Below are positions 1 through 8,675 of a stretch of DNA of 45,598 nucleotides, in pieces. The stretch comes from Lachnospiraceae bacterium (GTDB lineage Bacteria; Bacillota; Clostridia; Lachnospirales; Lachnospiraceae). Every line of letters begins with the position of its first letter. Position 1 is the stretch's first letter. Under the pieces are notes generated by a model. That model saw nothing but the letters and a program-made list of their open reading frames with translations. It ran no database searches and was not told where the DNA came from. The position numbers and the translations under genes are program-made. Where the stretch lies: NCBI GenBank assembly GCA_024403555.1, contig JAKSRP010000010.1, forward strand, positions 1 to 45,598. Reading direction: 5' to 3'.

Positions 1-469
1 ATACAGATTTTTGTTTTGCAAGCCACTCTTTATTTTCACCAATACCACGGATTGTCAACATAATATGTGCATGCGGATTACCATCATCTTTATCATGCAA
101 AGCCCAGTCTGCAATCATTCCTTTTGAAACAAAATTCTCCTGAATATATTTTCTTACACATTCAATCTGTTCTGCTCTGGTCATTTCTATTGGTAGAGAA
201 ACTTCTATTTCTCTCGCAAACTGTGCATCTGATCGTTTTTCAATACTCTGAACATCGTTCCACAATTTCTCTCTATCTAAAAAGCGTTCCGGTGCATTCT
301 CTGGAAGAAGTATCTCTGACATTACAACACCTTTTTTTCTATTAAAATCATGTGTCAGTCCTGTTTCTTCGTTGTATAGTTTTTCTCCTGAACGATAGGC
401 TGCAGAAGCAATAGCAGATCTGCCACCCTTGCGATTGATGATTTTAATTGAACAATGATATATTGACAT
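1..469 (-). CDS. MobA/MobL (MOBQ) relaxase, N-terminal 156 residues, cut by window edge
   Basis: The frame opens at an ATG at 467-469 behind a strong AGGAGG and stays open to the left edge, so only the N-terminus is present. The start MSIYHCSIKI followed by the AAYRSGEKL block is the family signature. Tyr25 sits where the catalytic tyrosine of RSF1010 MobA lies, and a metal-binding NPHAHIML motif (His133, His135) follows. Family knowledge: this HUH-type enzyme nicks oriT and leads the transferred strand. It is the last visible gene of the leftward mobile-element operon and lies directly downstream of the predicted oriT. The C-terminal part, which may include a primase or helicase domain, cannot be judged. 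The relaxase call is firm; the mobilization range is unknown. Confidence 0.9.
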   Translation of the reverse strand, partial: MSIYHCSIKIINRKGGRSAIASAAYRSGEKLYNEETGLTHDFNRKKGVVMSEILLPENAPERFLDREKLWNDVQSIEKRSDAQFAREIEVSLPIEMTRAEQIECVRKYIQENFVSKGMIADWALHDKDDGNPHAHIMLTIRGIGENKEWLAKQKSV

Positions 470-518
470 TTTCGCATACCTCCTTCCTTATATATTTCTT
501 TGCGAAATGGAAATCTAT

Positions 519-680
519 GGGATTCCATAAGGGCAACGCCCTTTGGTGCTGTCTGCATAAGACCCGCCGACGGAACGAGCCCGGCAGCTCATAAGAACTG
601 ACCGGTCACCAAATGGTGAACTTATGTCATGTGGGCTGCGCCCACATATAAGTGCGCCCTTACTACGTAATGGAATCCGG
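519..680 (+). other. Predicted origin of transfer (oriT), MOBQ type
   Basis: The 244-base gap between the TraD-like gene and the relaxase holds TAAGTGCGCCCT at 649-660, which matches the nic core known from RSF1010/pIP501/pGO1-type MOBQ plasmids; the expected nick is after 656. Just upstream, GTGGGC-TGC-GCCCAC (631-645) is a perfect hairpin. A second perfect dyad, AAGGGC-AAC-GCCCTT, lies at 529-543. GGATTCCATAAGGGC (520-534) is repeated inverted, with a spacer, as GCCCTTA...ATGGAATCC at 657-679. The nicked strand and exact site are inferred from the family. Confidence 0.8.
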
Positions 681-713
681 GAAAATACTTCTAAAGAGAA
701 TGTTTTATCGAAT

Positions 714-983
714 CTAACCTGCCACTTCATTCATTGCTTTGGAAAAATACTTTCCATTTGTTTCCTGCTTTTTCAAGAAATTCATGAATCGAATTTTATC
801 TTCTTCGCTAAATTCTCTACCAAGAACAGATTCTGCAATTCCGCCGATCTCAATCAATCTTCTAGTACGTCTTTTTCGATCTTCTTCTGATTTTCTTTTT
901 TTCAAATCTCGCTCTCTGGCTTTTAACTGTTCCTGTTTTCTAATGTTCTCTTCAATTCTTTCGTCAATTGTTTTTCTAGCCAT
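714..983 (-). CDS. TraD-like small conjugal transfer accessory protein
   Basis: An 89-residue, highly charged protein. The first half is Lys/Arg/Glu-rich and probably helical or coiled coil; the second holds a TRRLIEIGGIAESVLGREF block that resembles the conserved core of small TraD proteins found beside MobA-type relaxases. The start ATG at 983 has a good AAGGAG site and follows the MobC-like gene by 3 bases. It lies between that gene and oriT, which supports a relaxosome role. The exact family (TraD versus a DUF3847-like group) is not certain from reading alone. Confidence 0.65.
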   Translation of the reverse strand: MARKTIDERIEENIRKQEQLKARERDLKKRKSEEDRKRRTRRLIEIGGIAESVLGREFSEEDKIRFMNFLKKQETNGKYFSKAMNEVAG

Positions 984-986
984 TAT

Positions 987-1349
987 TTACTCCTTCCCAT
1001 ACAGGTTTTCTAACATCTCAAGAATCATACGGAGAGATTCCAATCTGCAATCTTCTAATCCCTCCAGATTAGGATTACGATTAATTGCTTCTGCAATTTC
1101 CTTTACCTGCTTTCTTATCTCATCAAACACGCGAATATTTCCTTTGATCATCACATTCTGATATAAGCAACTTTCAATAAAATACTTCGACTTTGGAAGA
1201 CCAGTTAATGCAATTCTGGATTCGATCAATTTCTTTTCTTTCTCAGAAACTCTAAAGTTCATCGTAACATTTCGTTTTCTATTTTTCTTCTTTTTCTGCT
1301 CCTGTTTTTTACCATCTGACATGGTAACTCTTCTGAAAATCTTATCCAT
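987..1349 (-). CDS. MobC-like relaxosome accessory protein
   Basis: A 120-residue protein with a very basic N-terminus (KKQEQKKKKNRKRN) followed by TMNFRVSEKEKKLIESRIA, which is typical of the ribbon-helix-helix part of MobC-type plasmid mobilization proteins, and a helical C-terminus. Family knowledge: such proteins bind near oriT and help the relaxase open the nic region. The start at 1349 has GGGGAGG upstream, overlapping the end of the integrase gene, so translation is probably coupled. An internal ATG (MSDGKK, residue 10) is possible but has no comparable binding site. Confidence 0.75.
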   Translation of the reverse strand: MDKIFRRVTMSDGKKQEQKKKKNRKRNVTMNFRVSEKEKKLIESRIALTGLPKSKYFIESCLYQNVMIKGNIRVFDEIRKQVKEIAEAINRNPNLEGLEDCRLESLRMILEMLENLYGKE

Positions 1350-1352
1350 TAT

Positions 1353-2444
1353 TTATTCCTCCCCACTGAATGCTTTATCAAGGCTATTTGCCATCTCTCG
1401 CTGTACAGAAGGATACAAATGAGAATATCTTTCTGTAATCGTCACACTTTCATGACCTAATCTTTCTGCAATCTGAATTGGCGAATAACCAAGATTAATC
1501 AACAAGGCACAACTGGAATGTCTAAGATCGTGAATACGAATTCTTTTCACTCCTGATATACGACACCCACGATCCATCTCATGATGGAGATAACTTTTGG
1601 TCACTGCAAAGATGCGGCTATTTTCATCCACTTTATAAAGAGAATCGAAGAATTCTTCCATCTCCACACACAGAAATTCTGGGAGGTCGATGAGTCGATT
1701 TCCTTTTTCTGTTTTCGGTGAAACAATCATTTTCTCTCCTTTTATCACCTGAAAGTTTTTGTTAATTCGCAAAATACGTTTCTCAAGATCAAAATCTGCC
1801 TTTGTAAGTGCCAATAATTCGCCACAGCGGATTCCAGTCCAGTAAAGAATCTGAAATGCATAGTAGGAAATCGGTTTATCCTTCATTACTTCAGAAAACT
1901 GCAAATATTCTTCCTTTGTCCAGAAAAGCATTTCCTGTGCTTTAGCTCTTCCCATCTTCTTATTAACGATGCAAGGATTCTTAGGAAGATCATAATATTT
2001 GACTGCATGGTTAAAAATCGCATTCAGCTGATTCTGTATTGTTCTAAGATAGGTTGGAGAATATCCTTTCCCATTCCCATCTCTCAGACCAAGTAACGCA
2101 TTCTGCCACTGAAGGACATCCGTAGATGTCACTTCAGATAGACTTTTATTCTCAAAATATGGCCTGATGTGAGTGTTAATGATGTTTTCCTTTGTAGCAA
2201 ATGTACTGGCCTTTATCTGTGGCTTCAGATCATCCATATAGATGTCTACAAACATCCCAAATCCCATATTAATGTCTTTCGTTTTCTTAGCCAGAAATTC
2301 TCTTTCATATGCCAATGCTTCTTTCTTCGTAGCAAATCCTCTTTTTTCATGTTTCCTGCGAATCCCTTTCCAATCTGTATAGTAACAGGCAACACGCCAG
2401 CTATTTCCTTTATATCCATTCCATTTGTCTTTATAAACTGCCAT
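1353..2444 (-). CDS. int: Tyrosine recombinase / integrase of the mobile element
   Basis: A 363-residue site-specific recombinase. Residues ~1-50 form a small N-terminal arm-binding domain (YTDWKGIRRKHEKRGF), followed by a SAM-like core-binding domain (~55-150) and the catalytic domain. The catalytic residues are visible: Arg in YWTGIRCGELLAL, the HDLRHSS box, the His of LGHESVTIT and the nucleophile Tyr in ERYSHLYP. Full length for the Tn916/phage-type group. It starts on the last base of the dnaC-like gene and is followed at 3 bases by mobC, so it is part of the leftward operon. It presumably integrated the element beside guaA, although the integrase gene lies ~4.6 kb from that junction. 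Confidence 0.95.
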   Translation of the reverse strand: MAVYKDKWNGYKGNSWRVACYYTDWKGIRRKHEKRGFATKKEALAYEREFLAKKTKDINMGFGMFVDIYMDDLKPQIKASTFATKENIINTHIRPYFENKSLSEVTSTDVLQWQNALLGLRDGNGKGYSPTYLRTIQNQLNAIFNHAVKYYDLPKNPCIVNKKMGRAKAQEMLFWTKEEYLQFSEVMKDKPISYYAFQILYWTGIRCGELLALTKADFDLEKRILRINKNFQVIKGEKMIVSPKTEKGNRLIDLPEFLCVEMEEFFDSLYKVDENSRIFAVTKSYLHHEMDRGCRISGVKRIRIHDLRHSSCALLINLGYSPIQIAERLGHESVTITERYSHLYPSVQREMANSLDKAFSGEE

Positions 2445-3157
2445 TATGCCACACCTCCATATAAGCGATAATTAAGCTCCTTACCCATAAAATAAATGAT
2501 ATTTCCTCTGCACATTTCAATTAAACGACTGGCGATCGCCTCATCAAAATTAATGAGCTCATCCGGTGTTTTTTCTGTACTAATGATGATTGGAAGATTA
2601 TTGTTATATCGATAATTCACAATTTCATAAATGATATTGACATCTGACTCTGTAATCTTCCCTTTCAAAAAGTCATCAATGAAAAGAACCGAAGCATTCT
2701 TATATCTGCTTAACTCTCGATTATATTTTTCCGAATCAAGTATGGAAGCTTTTAATTCTGTCATCTCATCTCGATAACCCATATATATTACAGCTGTTCC
2801 ATCATGAATGAGTTGTATGCTGCATGCCGTTCCTAAATGTGTTTTTCCTGCTCCTACCTGTCCACAAAGCATAAGTGAATTGTAACGTTCATTCTTAAAA
2901 GTTAAGAATTCATCTGCATATCTTTCAACCGTATACTTTGCATCCATTAAAATCGGATTATTTTCCGTATAATAATTCTGAAAAGTCTTTTCCTTGAATT
3001 CCTTTGCAAGGCCACTTCTCTCCAGACGTTCCATGGCAATTTTAATTTCCTGGCACTTACAAGGTGCACAATATTCATGCCCGTCTCTTATTGTGAAAAC
3101 ATAGCCTACATCATTACACACTGGACATTTATCTTTTTCTTTATTCTCAAAACTCAT
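2444..3157 (-). CDS. DnaC/IstB-like AAA+ ATPase (helicase loader type)
   Basis: A 237-residue protein. An N-terminal zinc-ribbon-like stretch (CPVCNDVGY ... CAPCKC, residues ~12-33) precedes an AAA+ module with Walker A GQVGAGKTH and Walker B VLFIDDF; the sensor segment is IIISTEKTPDEL. Proteins of this type load replicative helicase onto an origin. It follows the replication-initiator gene by 3 bases and overlaps the integrase start by one base. The pairing suggests that the element replicates autonomously after excision. An IstB transposition role is less likely because no IS21 transposase is nearby. Confidence 0.85.
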   Translation of the reverse strand: MSFENKEKDKCPVCNDVGYVFTIRDGHEYCAPCKCQEIKIAMERLERSGLAKEFKEKTFQNYYTENNPILMDAKYTVERYADEFLTFKNERYNSLMLCGQVGAGKTHLGTACSIQLIHDGTAVIYMGYRDEMTELKASILDSEKYNRELSRYKNASVLFIDDFLKGKITESDVNIIYEIVNYRYNNNLPIIISTEKTPDELINFDEAIASRLIEMCRGNIIYFMGKELNYRLYGGVA

Positions 3158-3160
3158 AAT

Positions 3161-3886
3161 CTACCTTCTTTCCTGAATCAATTCCACCATTCGTTCCGAA
3201 TGCTTGGATGTTTGTGTTGCTGGGATCGCTACTTTATTGTTGTATTTGTGTTCTTCACACCAATCTGAAATTCTCTTTTTATTCAGACATCCATGATATG
3301 GCTTTGTAAGGATCCTGTGAATCACACTATCTACAATAGAAACACCATATATAGAAACCAATTCCTGATATTCGCTTTCAGTAAGGATTTCCTGATCCAA
3401 CTGATACTTCACAATATCTGTGTGTCGCGTTTCGTTACTACACTCTCCTATACTAACCTGACCTATACTATCCTGACCTACACTACACTGTGCGGCCCAT
3501 GTGCCGTCCGTGGACGGTCCAGATTTTTTCCCTATATCTGATCTGGTTTTTGCTTCAAGAAGCTCCAAATCTGGAAGAACCTGAACTAACAAATCTTTAT
3601 AAATGCTATCTTTTTTTCGATCTGCGCGAATTTTATTGCTTTCACGCCAATCCATGATATACGACACCAGATCCTCGTTGAGAATTACAATAAATTTTTT
3701 ACTATAAAGAATTCTTAGGTCATCTTCTGATGCCTTAATCAAATTCATAACCGGATATGCTTCTACAACTCCATCGTCATCCGCGTTCAGGCAAAGATGA
3801 AAATATAGATTCTGCGAAGAAGGCGGCATCTTTAAGAATCTGGCACTTTCCACAATTCGTTTTGAAATCATTCTTCTATCTGCCAT
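3161..3886 (-). CDS. Replication initiator / replisome organizer-like protein
   Basis: The ATG at 3886 (MADRRMISKRIVESARFLKM) was chosen because AAAGGAGG lies 10 bases upstream; an upstream ATG in frame lacks such a site. The first ~100 residues resemble the N-terminal DNA-binding domain of phage and ICE replisome organizers (SSQNLYFHLCLNADDDGVV). Residues ~125-145 hold a short internal repeat (CSVGQDSIGQVSIGE) encoded by 15-bp direct repeats at 3446-3490. The C-terminus is DnaD-like in tone. Located directly before the DnaC-like gene. A small terminated RNA is predicted on the opposite strand over its leader (3950-4005). Function is inferred from layout and the N-terminal motif. Confidence 0.7.
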   Translation of the reverse strand: MADRRMISKRIVESARFLKMPPSSQNLYFHLCLNADDDGVVEAYPVMNLIKASEDDLRILYSKKFIVILNEDLVSYIMDWRESNKIRADRKKDSIYKDLLVQVLPDLELLEAKTRSDIGKKSGPSTDGTWAAQCSVGQDSIGQVSIGECSNETRHTDIVKYQLDQEILTESEYQELVSIYGVSIVDSVIHRILTKPYHGCLNKKRISDWCEEHKYNNKVAIPATQTSKHSERMVELIQERR

Positions 3887-3914
3887 ATGGCTTATACCTC
3901 CTTTCATTTTTCGA

Positions 3915-3943
3915 TTGAAAAGATGCACTTACCATGCTAATAT
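3915..3943 (+). promoter_or_regulatory. Promoter of the predicted antisense RNA
   Basis: TTGAAA (3915-3920), a 17-base spacer, then TAATAT (3938-3943) on the plus strand: a near-consensus sigma-A promoter. It points into a 60-base interval that ends in a terminator and contains no rightward gene. Confidence 0.7.
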
Positions 3944-3949
3944 GAATTT

Positions 3950-4005
3950 GCGAGATTGCATGCCAGCAATGGTATGTGCTGCCCCTTTTCGAAGGGGCTT
4001 TTTTC
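3950..4005 (+). ncRNA. Predicted short antisense / counter-transcribed RNA
   Basis: Starting ~7 bases after the TAATAT box, the plus strand can form stem 1 GCATGCCA-GCAA-TGGTATGT (3958-3977; GNRA-type tetraloop, two G-U pairs). It is followed by a terminator stem GCCCCTT-TTCG-AAGGGGC (3981-3998) and a T6 tract, giving a transcript of ~55 nt. The RNA is exactly complementary to the leader between the excisionase-like gene and the replication initiator in the leftward operon mRNA. It may act like a plasmid copy-control RNA. Promoter, structure and terminator are visible; the regulatory role is inference. Confidence 0.65.
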
Positions 4006-4020
4006 TTTTTAATTGTCCCA

Positions 4021-4221
4021 TCAATGTGCACCTGTTCTTAGACAAGCCTCTTCATACCAGATTCGATTTACTTTACCTGCAACTACAATTGCGCGAGGAT
4101 TCTGTTCTTTCATCTCCTTGTTCAACTGCTTAATAACCTCATAAGCTTTCGCTCTTGAAACTCCAAGATCAAAAATAACAGTTTCCACACCTACAAATAA
4201 TGGTAAACGTTCTTCTTTCAT
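4021..4221 (-). CDS. Small HTH protein, probable excisionase / directionality factor
   Basis: A 66-residue basic protein with an HTH-like segment (VIFDLGVSRAKAYEVIKQLN) and a conserved-looking tail ending NRIWYEEACLRTG. Size, HTH position and its place as first gene of the integrase operon fit Xis-type proteins or a small MerR-like helix-turn-helix. The start at 4221 has AAAGGAG upstream. It is transcribed from the promoter at 4287-4315 flanked by two operators, so excision and replication genes would be switched together. It could instead be a second small regulator; no catalytic residues are expected. Confidence 0.65.
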   Translation of the reverse strand: MKEERLPLFVGVETVIFDLGVSRAKAYEVIKQLNKEMKEQNPRAIVVAGKVNRIWYEEACLRTGAH

Positions 4222-4259
4222 TCGTTTGTCTCCTTTCTTTATATCTCAACGTTCTATTT

Positions 4260-4279
4260 CAGACATATTTTTATATCTG
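4260..4279. promoter_or_regulatory. Operator 1 (dyad AGACATA-TTTT-TATATCT)
   Basis: A 7-4-7 inverted repeat extended by C/G at the ends, lying at the predicted transcription start of the leftward operon. It matches operator 2 in arms and spacer. A similar half-site TTATGTCTG lies at ~4365-4373. The divergent XRE protein is the likely binder. Confidence 0.65.
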
Positions 4280-4286
4280 TATAATG

Positions 4287-4315
4287 ATAATACAGCCAAA
4301 ACTATTCTTTGTCAA
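4287..4315 (-). promoter_or_regulatory. Promoter of the excision/replication/mobilization operon
   Basis: On the minus strand TTGACA (4315-4310), a 17-base spacer and TATTAT (4292-4287) form a near-perfect sigma-A promoter. It is bracketed by operator 1 downstream and operator 2 just upstream of the -35 box, which fits tight repression in the integrated state. Confidence 0.8.
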
Positions 4316-4322
4316 TAACAAA

Positions 4323-4340
4323 AGATATATTTTTATGTCT
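4323..4340. promoter_or_regulatory. Operator 2 (dyad AGATATA-TTTT-TATGTCT)
   Basis: The same 7-4-7 architecture as operator 1, with the variable base pair swapped between arms. It lies between the leftward promoter and the regulator gene, so one protein could control both directions. Confidence 0.65.
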
Positions 4341-4421
4341 ATTTCATTCATTTCTCTTTATTTTTTATGTCTGTTATGATAAAATGAAGTTACATTTTTT
4401 AGAGTAAGGAAACATATACAT

Positions 4422-5387
4422 ATGAAACTTGGAGAAAAAATCAGAAGATTAAGGGTTATGGCAGGGCTTACCCAAAAAGAATTAGGAAAAAAGATAGGAT
4501 TTTCAGCAGCTACTGCCGACTCCCGAATGAGAAAATATGAAAGCTGCCAGATGGCACCTAAAGAAGATATAAGAACCAAACTTGCAGAAGTTCTTGATGT
4601 AGATATGTCTGCTTTGTCAGATATTGATATCCAAACATACGAAGATGTAATGCATGTTCTCTTCCTCCTGGAAGAAGAATTTGGAATGAAAATCGAAAGA
4701 ACTACAGAGAAAACCAGTCTGGTGTTTGATAATAATGCAAACACAGCGTCTATTCTGAATGGATATCTTTATATATGGGACGCGCAAAAGAGAAAATATG
4801 AGCAGTCTATTGATGAAGTAAAAGACGAAGCAGAAGATCAATATAAAAGATGGAAGGCTCGCTTTCCAAAAGATATCCAATCATACTGTAGTGATCAGTT
4901 GTATAAACTCAGCCAATTCTATGCGCCATTTGTACAAGCAGCACAAGAGTCCGGATGTACGATTTCTACTGTATCTGACTTTATTGTTCAGATCAGAGAA
5001 TTATGCCAATGTCCTCTTACCATAGAATCAGAAACCAAATTATATAAACCTGGTGATGGTGCTCTGGTACTGACATTTCTCCTCTCCGAACTTCTTGCGC
5101 CAGAGCAAGCTGAGACACACAAAAGATTCGGTGAATATCTCTACATGCTTTCCGTAATGGAATCTTTCGGAATGCTTATTGATAAGGATCTTTTCACCAC
5201 AGAATGTGGCACACAAATCTCTTATACTTTACATATGAGTACTTTAATGGCTCTGAAGTCAATTATTCGGGACATTCAGCGCTTCGAGAAGCAGGCAGAT
5301 AGCAATGATTGGGATAAAGAAATGTTTGAGATGGATTATGAAGATACACTCAGACAATTTAACATAAGTATTGCTGAAAACATTTGA
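4422..5387 (+). CDS. XRE-family transcriptional regulator of the element
   Basis: A 321-residue protein. Residues 1-65 form a Cro/C1-type HTH (MKLGEKIRRLRVMAGLTQKE ... FSAATADSRMRKYES). The remainder is a long helical region with no recognised catalytic motif. It is divergent from the excisionase operon, with the paired operators between them, so it is the probable element repressor. AAGGA lies ~11 bases before the ATG. It is followed after 18 bases by the AlbA_2-type gene and probably co-transcribed with it. No peptidase (ImmA or LexA-type) domain is visible, so how it would be relieved is unknown. Confidence 0.85.
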   Translation: MKLGEKIRRLRVMAGLTQKELGKKIGFSAATADSRMRKYESCQMAPKEDIRTKLAEVLDVDMSALSDIDIQTYEDVMHVLFLLEEEFGMKIERTTEKTSLVFDNNANTASILNGYLYIWDAQKRKYEQSIDEVKDEAEDQYKRWKARFPKDIQSYCSDQLYKLSQFYAPFVQAAQESGCTISTVSDFIVQIRELCQCPLTIESETKLYKPGDGALVLTFLLSELLAPEQAETHKRFGEYLYMLSVMESFGMLIDKDLFTTECGTQISYTLHMSTLMALKSIIRDIQRFEKQADSNDWDKEMFEMDYEDTLRQFNISIAENI

Positions 5388-5405
5388 TCTGAGAGGTAAA
5401 ATACT

Positions 5406-6872
5406 ATGACAGATATTTTTGATATTTCCCAATTTGATTCCTATAGAGAAGATAACCGCCGTGAAGTCAAAAAGGCTCGCGATGGCCTTCCAGTTTCACT
5501 TTGGGATACATACTCAGCCTTTGCTAATTGCTATGGAGGTGTCATAATCCTTGGAGTAAAAGAAGGAAAAGATGGTAGTTGGCATACAACAGGATTAAAA
5601 AATGCATCCAAACTCCAAAAAGAATTTTGGGATATTATAAATAATACTAAGAAGGTCAGCATCAATCTCCTCACTGAAGATGCAGTAGAAATTTATGAGT
5701 ATAACGACGATATCATCATGGTAATCCATGTTCCTGCAGCACGCAGAGAACAGAAGCCGGTTTTCATTAATGATGATATGTTTGGTGGTACTTTCCGAAG
5801 AAATTATGAAGGTGACTACCATTGTACTCGTATTCAGGTTAAAACGATGCTTCGTGATCAGGCCGATGATACTATAGATATGTCTGTTCTTGATAATTTA
5901 AACATGGATATTTTTAACATGGACTCCGTCCGAGGTTACAGAAATACCTTTGCCGGACTGAAAGACGGGCATCCATTTCTAAGACTAGATGACAATGAAT
6001 TCTTACGCAGCATCGGAGCTGCTGCAATCTCTGACAAGGACAATCAACTGCATCCAACAGCCGCTGGCCTGTTAATGTTTGGAAATGAATATGATATTGT
6101 TCGTCAATTTCCTGATTATTTTTTGGATTATCGCGCTTTACTTGACCCTAACATTCGCTGGACAGATCGCATCAACTCCAGTTCCGGTGATTGGTCAGGT
6201 AATATTTTCGATTTTTATTTCCGTGTCTACAATAAATTAAAGCAGTCTCTGAATGTTCCTTTTAAGTTATCAGGACTCACTAGAATCGACGATACCCCTA
6301 TGCATGAAGCCATTCGTGAAGCTCTTGCCAATTGTTTAATAAATGCAGATTACTTTGGTTCCAGAGGAATTGTAATCACTCTCCAGCAGAATCAGATTAT
6401 GCTTTCTAATCCTGGCTATAGCAGAACAGGAAAAGTTCAGATGATTCGAGGAGGAGTTTCAGATCCTAGAAACCGAGGCCTTATGAAAATGTTTAATCTC
6501 ATTGATATTGGTGAACGTGCTGGAAGCGGTATTCCACATATTATTAATATATGGCAAGATGAAGACCTAAAAGATCCTATCATTCAAGAGGAATTTGGTT
6601 CAGATCGTACCAGCCTAATTTTATCGCTTGAAAAAAAACAAGCGATAAAAACAAGCGATAACGAACGTTCTTCTTCTCCTGTAAGAGGAAAGAAAACGAT
6701 AGAAAATCAACAAAAGATCTTAGAATATTTAAAGGATAACGGTCGTTCCAAATGCTCAGACATCGCTATTTTCCTCAATCTTAGCGAAGCACGCACACGA
6801 GCACTCCTCTCTGGAATGGATGAAATAGAGGCTGTTGGAAGTAATCGAAATAGAACCTACCGAATCAAATAA
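5406..6872 (+). CDS. AlbA_2/Schlafen-type ATP-binding protein with C-terminal winged helix
   Basis: A 488-residue protein. An N-terminal AlbA_2 (divergent AAA-4) domain spans ~10-150, with the typical E-x-K near REVKKARDG and the AFANCYGGVIILGV block. A central HATPase_c_4-like region follows (MHEAIREALANCLINADYFG, and later GLMKMFNLIDIGERAGSG). A winged-helix tail (~435-488, LEYLKDNGRSKCSDIAIFL) completes it. Such proteins are often annotated as RecG-like or putative transcriptional regulators. It is cargo of the mobile element in one unit with the XRE gene. A 28-bp hairpin inside the gene is repeated as its terminator. A role in regulation or in defence is possible; the sequence does not decide. 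Confidence 0.8.
   Translation: MTDIFDISQFDSYREDNRREVKKARDGLPVSLWDTYSAFANCYGGVIILGVKEGKDGSWHTTGLKNASKLQKEFWDIINNTKKVSINLLTEDAVEIYEYNDDIIMVIHVPAARREQKPVFINDDMFGGTFRRNYEGDYHCTRIQVKTMLRDQADDTIDMSVLDNLNMDIFNMDSVRGYRNTFAGLKDGHPFLRLDDNEFLRSIGAAAISDKDNQLHPTAAGLLMFGNEYDIVRQFPDYFLDYRALLDPNIRWTDRINSSSGDWSGNIFDFYFRVYNKLKQSLNVPFKLSGLTRIDDTPMHEAIREALANCLINADYFGSRGIVITLQQNQIMLSNPGYSRTGKVQMIRGGVSDPRNRGLMKMFNLIDIGERAGSGIPHIINIWQDEDLKDPIIQEEFGSDRTSLILSLEKKQAIKTSDNERSSSPVRGKKTIENQQKILEYLKDNGRSKCSDIAIFLNLSEARTRALLSGMDEIEAVGSNRNRTYRIK
6619..6650. repeat. Hairpin repeat copy inside the AlbA_2 gene
   Basis: TTTTATCGCTTG, eight A, CAAGCGATAAAA form a perfect dyad within the coding sequence, at the linker before the winged-helix domain. 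A further half-site CAAGCGATAA follows at 6652-6661. The 28-bp core is identical to that of the terminator hairpin at 6877-6916. Confidence 0.85.
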
Positions 6873-6876
6873 AAAG

Positions 6877-6916
6877 TGGCGTTTATCGCTTGAAAAAAAA
6901 CAAGCGATAAACGCCA
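6877..6916 (+). terminator. Terminator of the XRE-AlbA_2 unit
   Basis: Four bases after the stop, TGGCGTTTATCGCTTG - A8 - CAAGCGATAAACGCCA makes a perfect 16-bp stem followed by a T-rich tract. It shares its inner 28 bp with the in-gene copy at 6619-6650. Confidence 0.85.
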
Positions 6917-7029
6917 TTATTTTATTATTTTCAGTGGCTCAAAAACTCTCCTTATAGATTCTGATTCCATGAAAAATATCATATAAAATTTTTCAATCCA
7001 AAAGTGGAAAATCTTTTTTTCAAAATATG

Positions 7030-7046
7030 GTAGACATTTTGTAGAC
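7030..7046. other. Candidate element end / integrase core region beside guaA
   Basis: GTAGAC occurs twice with an 11-bp period (7030-7035, 7041-7046) immediately before the guaA terminator. The mobile element must end somewhere between its last terminator (6916) and guaA (7095). This short direct repeat is the only recombination-like signal seen there. The matching left end is outside the window. Confidence 0.35.
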
Positions 7047-7054
7047 GTAAAAAA

Positions 7055-7083
7055 CGGAGAGCCTTATAAATAAAGGCTCTCCG
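7055..7083 (-). terminator. guaA terminator (bidirectional)
   Basis: CGGAGAGCCTT (7055-7065) pairs perfectly with AAGGCTCTCCG (7073-7083). In the guaA direction it is followed by six T; the other side also has a T-tract. Confidence 0.85.
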
Positions 7084-7094
7084 CTGTTTTTTTA

Positions 7095-8675
7095 TTATTC
7101 GAACTCAATTGTTTCTGGTGGTTTGGATGTTAAATCATAGAACACTCTGTTAACGCCACGAACTTCTTTGATAATTCGGTTCATTACGATCTGAAGTACT
7201 TCAAATGGAAGGTCTGCTGCTTCTGCTGTCATGAAGTCGATGGTTCTTACTGCACGAACAGCTACTGCGTAGTCGTAAGTTCTTTCATCACCCATAACAC
7301 CTACAGATCTCATATTTGTAAGTGCTGCAAAGTACTGGTTTGGCATCCATGGTGCTTCTACGCCATGTTCTTCCTTGTAAGCCTTTGCTGCTTTGTCTAC
7401 TTCTTCTCTATAAATATAGTCTGCATCCTGTACGATGCGTACTTTATCGCCTGTTACTTCACCAATGATACGGATTCCAAGACCTGGGCCTGGGAATGGC
7501 TGACGGTATACTAAGAATTCAGGAAGTCCAAGTTCAAGACCCGCTTTACGAACTTCATCTTTGAATAAGTTACGAAGTGGTTCAATGATTTCTTTGAAAT
7601 CTACGAAATCTGGAAGACCACCTACGTTGTGATGAGATTTGATTACTGCAGATTCTCCACCTAAACCGGATTCTACAACGTCTGGGTAGATTGTTCCCTG
7701 AGCAAGGAAATCAACAGCACCGATTTTCTGTGCTTCTTCTTCAAAGATACGGATGAATTCTTCACCGATGAGTTTACGTTTTTCTTCTGGTTCTGTAATA
7801 CCAGCTAATTTTGCATAATATCTTTCCTGTGCGTTAACACGGATGAAGTTGATATCAAAGTTACCCTTTTCACCGAAGATACCTTCTACTTCATCACCTT
7901 CGTTCTTTCTCATAAGACCGTGGTCAACGAATACACAAGTAAGCTGTGGTCCGATTGCCTTTGCAAGTAAAGCTGCAAGTACGGAAGAATCTACACCGCC
8001 GGAAAGAGCAAGTAATACTTTACCTTCTCCAACCTTTTCACGGATTGCCTGTACCTGGGATGCAACGAAGTCGTCCATTCTCCAGTCACCTGCACAGCCA
8101 CAGATGTTACGAACAAAGTTAAAGATCATCTTTGTTCCTTCTGGTGTGTGAAGTACTTCTGGATGGAACTGAATACCATATAATTTCTTTTCTGCATATT
8201 CAGCTGCTGCAACTGGACAGTCTTTTGTATGTGCGATGGATACAAATCCTTCACCCATAGCACTGATATAATCAAAGTGGCTCATCCAACAGGTTGTTTC
8301 TTCTGGAACTCCTGCAAATAATGGAGATTCTGTATTCACCTTAATATGTGTTTTACCGTATTCCTGAACATCTGCACGTTCAACCTTACCGCCTAAGATA
8401 TGCTGCATAAGCTGAGCACCGTAGCATAAACCAAGTACTGGAATACCTAATTCAAATAATTCTTTTGTATAAGTTGGAGCACCTTCTTCATAGCAGCTGT
8501 TTGGTCCGCCAGTTAAGATAATGCCCTTTGGATTCATCTCTTTGATCTTTTCAATATCTGTTTTATAAGAATAAATTTCACAGTATACGTTACATTCACG
8601 AACACGTCTTGCAACTAACTGATTATACTGTCCACCGAAGTCGACAACGATGACTAATTCGTTCTGCATTTGCAA
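7095..8675 (-). CDS. guaA: GMP synthase (glutamine-hydrolysing)
   Basis: A 526-residue, full-length enzyme converting XMP, glutamine and ATP to GMP. It has an N-terminal class I glutamine amidotransferase ([15 protein letters not shown]; nucleophile Cys in [18 protein letters not shown] catalytic His-x-Glu), then an ATP-pyrophosphatase domain with P-loop [10 protein letters not shown], then the dimerisation domain ending [15 protein letters not shown] precedes the ATG. A separate extended -10 promoter lies just upstream. The 3' end of guaA is a known integration hotspot for genomic islands, which fits the element next to it. No riboswitch is seen in its ~30-base leader. Confidence 0.98.

What the first reader, a model, noticed from the sequence alone, without database searches (positions are those of the whole stretch)
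3915..4005. Terminated small RNA antisense to the replication-initiator leader of an integrative element
A near-consensus promoter, a GNRA-capped stem, a UUCG-capped terminator and a T-tract occur within 91 bases on the strand opposite the leftward operon, with no gene to serve. This layout is that of plasmid copy-control RNAs and would let an integrated mobilizable element limit its own replication after excision. I do not know of a description in this element family.
Basis: partly seen in the sequence, partly recalled or inferred. Interest (0 to 1): 0.8.

Follow-up and report, generated by a model that had tools for sequence, protein, structure and literature searches.

The report
Antisense RNA in a mobilizable element
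A small mobile DNA element carries what looks like a real, conserved short RNA gene running against the messenger for its replication and integration genes, probably to hold those genes down, though nobody has yet shown that the RNA is made.

Summary
An extended -10 promoter (3915-3943) and a strong intrinsic terminator (3981-3998) on the + strand frame a predicted ~55-nt RNA opposite the xis-to-rep junction. By my criteria it is the only such unit on either strand of the window; 2 of 300 shuffles of bases 1-7100 gave one. Two homologues turned up, 78% and 69% identical, both keeping promoter, stem and terminator. Pairing survives the window-to-L003 changes better than under random placement (P 0.00075, or 0.004 within paired sites), but not significantly when the changed positions are held fixed (P 0.09). 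In the more distant element there is no initiator or helicase-loader gene: the RNA sits between xis and the integrase. So it is not a dedicated replication-initiator RNA. Best reading: a countertranscript that lowers expression of the xis-distal genes (rep-dnaC-int, or int alone), like plasmid pMV158 RNAII or pSK41 RNAI in layout. How it represses is open: a ribosome-site switch was supported in 1 of 3 leaders. It is rare (3 of 397 family genomes sampled). No transcript data exist here. New variant of a known kind.

The parts
3915..3943 (+). promoter of the small RNA: TTGAAA, 17 bp, TGC-TAATAT (extended -10)
   Evidence: 9 of 12, TG before second hexamer; kept, read by eye, in L003 (17 bp) and L004 (18 bp, TTGATA/TATTAT)
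3950..4005 (+). predicted antisense RNA body, about 55 nt: single-stranded 5' tail, stem A, terminator
   Evidence: both ends are predicted, not measured
3958..3977 (+). stem A, 8 pairs, loop GCAA
   Evidence: 8 of 8 pairs on + strand in window and L003, one double change; 6 and 7 of 8 on the - strand; energies favour + strand in window and L003, equal in L004
3981..4009 (+). intrinsic terminator: 7-bp G+C-rich stem and T-tract
   Evidence: more stable on + than on - in L003 and L004, equal in the window
3925..3979 (-). long imperfect inverted repeat B in the mRNA leader, spanning the promoter spacer and stem A's 3' arm
   Evidence: but more stable on the + strand and absent from the minimum-energy fold of one version of the L004 leader, so strand and form are not settled
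3897..3904 (-). Shine-Dalgarno of rep (AAAGGAGG)
   Evidence: sequence
4021..4221 (-). xis-like gene, 66 aa, related to the ICEBs1 excisionase
   Evidence: NF047858, E 8.5e-11, 41.4 bits, below the curated cut-off of 100
3161..3886 (-). rep-like gene: DnaD-like helicase loader, 241 aa
   Evidence: phrog_8489, E 5e-47; no Pfam or NCBIfam match at E 0.1
2444..3157 (-). DnaC-like helicase loader
1353..2444 (-). tyrosine integrase
987..1349 (-). NikA-like mobilization protein
2..469 (-). MobQ/MobA_MobL relaxase, cut by the contig end
4287..4315 (-). likely promoter of the xis operon, TTGACA-17-TATTAT, 11 of 12
4422..5387 (+). divergent HTH repressor-like gene

Best explanation
A short countertranscript gene sits convergently between xis and the next gene of a mobilizable element next to guaA. 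RNA polymerase would start at about 3950 on the + strand and stop at the terminator about 4005. The RNA is the exact complement of part of the untranslated stretch between the xis stop codon and the rep (or int) start codon. Its unstructured 5' tail can meet the loop region of the mRNA hairpin and zip into a full duplex. The expected result is less expression of the xis-distal genes (rep-dnaC-int, or int alone) while xis itself is spared, so the RNA would hold down replication and integration functions until the xis promoter is fully on. Shown here: layout, conservation, presence without rep. Moderately supported: paired changes. Inferred: transcription (about 0.75), pairing in cis (about 0.6), net repression (about 0.5). 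The way it represses (ribosome block, RNA cleavage, or collision of polymerases) is not resolved.
For: Only promoter-terminator unit in the window, rare in shuffles. Over the RNA with promoter L003 is 84% (81 of 96) and L004 80% (74 of 93, gaps left out) identical to the window, against 78% and 67% for the xis DNA and 68% for rep in L003; L003 to L004 is 73% against 67%. The covariance-model matches are strong, but L003 and L004 are members of the model. Window-L003 substitutions keep 20 of 21 B pairs, 8 of 8 of stem A, 7 of 7 of the terminator; null with random placement P 0.00075, within paired sites P 0.004. In L004 the B arms differ in sequence yet hold a 13-base exact inverted repeat. Stem A and terminator fold better on the + strand in 2 of 3 copies each, equal in the third. 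Leaders fold more stably than shuffles: z -3.9, -3.3, -4.1. The + strand ORFs listed to the left all overlap minus-strand genes with family support or the rep-like gene, so the terminator has no evident other client; I did not search those ORFs themselves. No conserved small ORF by eye on either strand. Precedent: pMV158 RNAII, 48 nt with single-stranded 5' tail (passages of PMC5703833 and PMC4387999).
Against: No expression data. Only three sequences, two of which share rep. With the 19 changed positions held fixed and only the new bases drawn at random, the pairing result is not significant (P 0.09): much of it comes from where changes fall. One B pair is broken in L003. Hairpin B is more stable on the + strand in 3 of 3, so it may be a DNA feature, and the L004 leader cut at other ends folds without B. 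Blocking the target region raises Shine-Dalgarno pairing in L003 only (0.62 to 0.98); window 0.76 to 0.78, L004 0.84 to 0.83; start-codon pairing goes 0.51 to 0.08 (window), 0.56 to 0.53 (L003) and 0.75 to 1.0 (L004). Shine-Dalgarno pairing of rep ranks only 7th of 30 genes in the window. Close xis relatives L023 and L024 (86% and 83%) lack the RNA.
Confidence: 0.47

Rival explanations
1. Plasmid-type copy control: the RNA exists to limit initiator synthesis after excision.
For: In the window and L003 the RNA lies opposite the leader of a DnaD-like gene followed by dnaC; layout resembles pMV158 RNAII and pSK41 RNAI (passages).
Against: L004's element has no rep or dnaC beside it and keeps the RNA before int. 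Relatives L023 and L024, with a close xis and a different downstream gene, have no RNA.
Confidence: 0.2
2. DNA-level switch: the inverted halves at 3925-3937 and 3966-3979 are binding sites of a protein, perhaps Xis, that controls the small promoter.
For: The halves stay complementary though they differ between copies; they lie about 41 bp apart, one in the promoter spacer; Xis is conserved with them while the repressor differs in L004; hairpin B shows no mRNA-strand preference.
Against: No excess of the motif: 17 matches with up to 3 mismatches in the window, these two included, against 16 expected. The bulge and mismatch sit at the same places in window and L003 (by eye), as in an RNA stem. 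It does not explain the terminator. It is compatible with the best explanation.
Confidence: 0.17
3. Conditional transcription attenuator of pT181/pIP501 type: hairpin B plus the following U-rich tract stops the xis transcript and the antisense RNA toggles it.
For: B is followed by AUCUUUUC, UUCUUUUC, UUCUUAUC; alternative pairings exist.
Against: U-tract interrupted; L004 stem base A+T-rich; no minus-strand terminator found by the scan in this interval; the RNA would prevent, not cause, B.
Confidence: 0.07
4. Type I toxin-antitoxin: the RNA silences a small toxin.
For: An ATG overlaps the xis stop in 3 of 3.
Against: The peptides (30 aa, 28 aa and a longer one) are in different frames and not conserved by eye.
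Confidence: 0.02
5. Chance: not transcribed.
For: Promoter score ordinary; pairing test not significant under the strictest null.
Against: Conservation of promoter and terminator and the shuffles.
Confidence: 0.07

Closest known systems
pMV158 RNAII (48 nt, antisense to repB)
   Same: Short, own promoter, single-stranded 5' tail, terminator hairpin, opposite the region just upstream of the start signals (passages of PMC5703833 and PMC4387999).
   Different: Plasmid with Rep_2 initiator and copG upstream; here xis is upstream, rep is DnaD-like or absent, and there is an additional stem before the terminator.
pSK41 RNAI (about 83 nt, antisense to the RepA_N leader)
   Same: Antisense to a leader whose folding could hide the ribosome site (passage of PMC5703833).
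   Different: RepA_N initiator, about 100 nt upstream; sequestration supported in only 1 of 3 leaders here.
Anti-Q of pCF10 and RteR of CTnDOT
   Same: Small RNAs that restrain transfer genes of mobile elements (passages of PMC6540685 and PMC9299015).
   Different: Different targets; anti-Q causes termination; RteR acts on a tra operon.
SGI1 S004-repA and sgm-sRNA
   Same: An integrative mobilizable element with post-transcriptional control of repA and a self-encoded RNA (passages of PMC7826253 and PMC9299015).
   Different: repA control there is by a leader peptide; the word antisense does not occur in that paper's main text; sgm-sRNA lies between mpsA and oriT.

Membership tests
plasmid copy-control antisense RNA | counter-transcribed to the leader of a replication gene | tested here: inconclusive
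   2 of 3 elements; in L004 it faces int and no rep lies there
plasmid copy-control antisense RNA | own promoter and intrinsic terminator | tested here: met
   predicted from sequence and kept in 3 of 3; activity not tested
plasmid copy-control antisense RNA | membership of a described RNA family | tested here: not met
   no Rfam match over the RNA at E 5
plasmid copy-control antisense RNA | sets copy number of the replicon | not testable with these tools
   needs an experiment
pT181/pIP501 attenuation | conditional intrinsic terminator on the mRNA before rep | tested here: not met
   no minus-strand terminator scored between 3884 and 4020 in the window; B has only an interrupted U-tract
pSK41-type translational control | antisense binding increases ribosome-site sequestration | tested here: inconclusive
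   rises in L003 only, 1 of 3
type I toxin-antitoxin | conserved small toxin ORF opposite the RNA | tested here: not met
   six-frame translations of three leaders compared by eye
integrative and mobilizable element | integrase, xis and relaxase without own mating pore | tested here: inconclusive
   integrase, xis-like, NikA-like and relaxase present, next to guaA; left end not seen because the contig ends, so a mating pore cannot be excluded

The most novel reading that the evidence does not exclude
Integrative mobilizable elements carry a dedicated countertranscript at the xis junction that sets the ratio of Xis to the downstream integration and replication proteins, so that one RNA times excision, replication and re-integration whatever module is plugged in behind xis; its promoter may in turn be switched by Xis binding the inverted halves.
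Probability: 0.3. Interest if true: 0.65.

Novelty: new variant of a known kind. Interest (0 to 1): 0.47.

Why it matters
The upkeep of excised mobilizable elements is called an unexplored world in a review (section heading of PMC5704250), in whose main text a word search found no antisense, small RNA, sRNA or copy number. A conserved antisense RNA at the xis junction would give such elements a control layer known from plasmids, and would make the balance between excision, replication and re-integration testable with one promoter mutation.

Tried and rejected
Rfam scan of 1-7100: 5 matches at E 5, none over the RNA, all below their gathering scores. Phage and plasmid collections: 5 phage and 2 plasmid records match in or at the edge of rep, or in dnaC, none over the RNA; xis by tblastn gave 2 plasmid and 1 phage records, 44% identical. 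Genome contigs by the rep protein: one distant locus. Viral contigs: 14 distant rep loci, none with the RNA (best L012, 21.7 bits, E 0.3, read as chance); integrase none; promoter pattern 0; looser pattern 17 loci, best 26 bits, none with a comparable terminator by eye, read as chance. A model hit in G430 (36 bits, E 0.0075, one of 395 genomes) has a palindromic operator in its spacer near an HTH gene and is read as chance. Search for other copies of two stretches of the RNA in the window, on both strands with up to 3 mismatches: none beyond its own locus.

Not upheld: the tidy switch model in which the RNA frees a pyrimidine tract to cover the ribosome site, since only 1 of 3 leaders behaves so and the control shows that such pairing is common. 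A coupled leader peptide: an ATG overlaps the xis stop in 3 of 3, but a ribosome at its end lowers Shine-Dalgarno pairing only in the window (0.71 to 0.53; L003 0.53 to 0.52; in L004 the ORF ran off the extracted stretch, so that row shows nothing).

Full report
Setting. Its left 7 kb hold a mobile element next to the 3' end of guaA; I did not find its exact ends. On the minus strand run a xis-like gene, a DnaD-like gene, a dnaC-like gene, a tyrosine integrase, a NikA-like gene and a MobQ relaxase cut by the contig end; on the plus strand lie an HTH repressor-like gene and a Schlafen/AlbA-domain gene. A strong promoter, 11 of 12, faces xis. I take the host to be a gut Firmicute of the Lachnospiraceae kind; that is recalled, not from a call.

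The observation. The promoter is weaker than claimed (9 of 12 with an extended TG) and is not significant alone. The combination is: with my criteria it is the only promoter-terminator unit in the window on both strands, and 2 of 300 shuffles of bases 1-7100 produced one.

Homologues. DNA search of 299 family genomes gave the window, G261 (78%), G252 (69%) and a 37-base match in G141 that I discard. A covariance model built from the three found the same three in 397 family genomes. It found 1 of 5, 1 of 2 and 1 of 8 in their genera, each the known copy, 2 of 395 relatives of G261 including the doubtful G430, 2 of 392 of the order, and 0 of 19 and 0 of 6 in two genera with close xis relatives. 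These samples overlap, and the large runs used stricter filters that lose weak matches. Xis relatives occur in 41 of 397 genomes; of the 30 xis loci fetched, 3 hold the RNA. So it belongs to a small sub-lineage. All three elements adjoin guaA.

What the third copy says. L003 has xis, RNA, rep, dnaC, int like the window. L004 has xis, RNA, int, NikA-like, relaxase, with no rep or dnaC there, and a different, shorter HTH protein in the repressor's place (genes of these two loci named by eye from the translations). The RNA therefore follows xis, not rep.

Structure and selection. Identity over the RNA with promoter is 84% and 80% to the window, gaps left out, against 78% and 67% for xis and 68% for rep in L003. 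Between the window and L003 there are 19 differences in 101 ungapped sites, 8 of them at paired sites. Placing them at random on sites of the same base breaks on average about 4 B pairs, 1.7 stem A pairs and 1.5 terminator pairs; the real ones break one, none and none (P for the sum 0.00075). Two stricter nulls give P 0.004 (reassignment within paired sites only) and 0.09 (positions fixed, new bases random). So the evidence from paired changes is moderate. Stem A is a better hairpin on the + strand in the window and L003 and equal in L004; the terminator is better on + in L003 and L004 and equal in the window. That wobble bias supports a plus-strand RNA. The minus-strand leader is strongly folded in all three (z -3.9, -3.3, -4.1). 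The long inverted repeat B appears in the full folds of all three, but not in the L004 fold. B is more stable on the plus strand in all three, and the predicted plus-strand RNA does not include its left arm, so B may be a DNA site or a leader structure; I cannot tell.

Mechanism. Full complementarity with the leader and the location, ending about 15 bases from the xis stop in the window and leaving the rep ribosome site uncovered, make a countertranscript the natural reading. I tested a switch in which binding exposes the ribosome site to a pyrimidine tract. Pairing of the site changed from 0.76 to 0.78, 0.62 to 0.98 and 0.84 to 0.83 in the window, L003 and L004, and pairing of the start codon from 0.51 to 0.08, 0.56 to 0.53 and 0.75 to 1.0, so the leaders do not agree. 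A control over 30 genes of the window puts the rep site 7th. The mode of repression is open. A transcription attenuator is not favoured. A toxin peptide is not conserved.

Known systems. pMV158 RNAII and pSK41 RNAI are the nearest in layout (passages of PMC5703833, and PMC4387999); anti-Q and RteR are small RNAs of conjugative elements (passages of PMC6540685 and PMC9299015). SGI1 shows that a mobilizable element can replicate under translational control of repA, by a leader peptide (passages of PMC7826253). My searches of the open-access library for antisense RNA or small RNA with integrative or mobilizable elements, excisionase, integrase or replisome organizer listed no paper that, by its title and the start of its abstract, describes this arrangement; one search listed 9 of 10 and only 10 of 36 papers found. 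I saw passages of eight papers, none in full, and subscription papers are mostly not held.

Verdict. A probable new antisense RNA gene of mobilizable elements, working like plasmid countertranscripts but not tied to replication; expression and effect unproven.

Noticed in passing
window 4019-4023 and the same place in L003 and L004: An ATG overlaps the xis stop codon (TGATG, TAATG, TGATG) in 3 of 3, opening a leader ORF through the antisense target; the peptide is not conserved by eye.
   Followed up: partly
window 6875-6918: An 18-pair inverted repeat just after the Schlafen/AlbA-domain gene contains CAAGCGATAAA, which also occurs inside the 3' part of that gene.
   Followed up: no
L073 285-3942: The rep-less element of G252 carries genes whose translations look like type I restriction-modification proteins near its relaxase (by eye, no family search).
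   Followed up: no
L054 1501-1607: A short terminated promoter unit with a palindromic operator (CACGAAATTCGTG) in its spacer, similar sites nearby, upstream of an HTH gene; model score 36 bits, read as chance.
   Followed up: partly
window 3914-3923 and 4004-4013: The -35 region and the T-tract are 90% complementary over 10 bases, so the whole small-RNA unit is a nested inverted repeat.
   Followed up: partly
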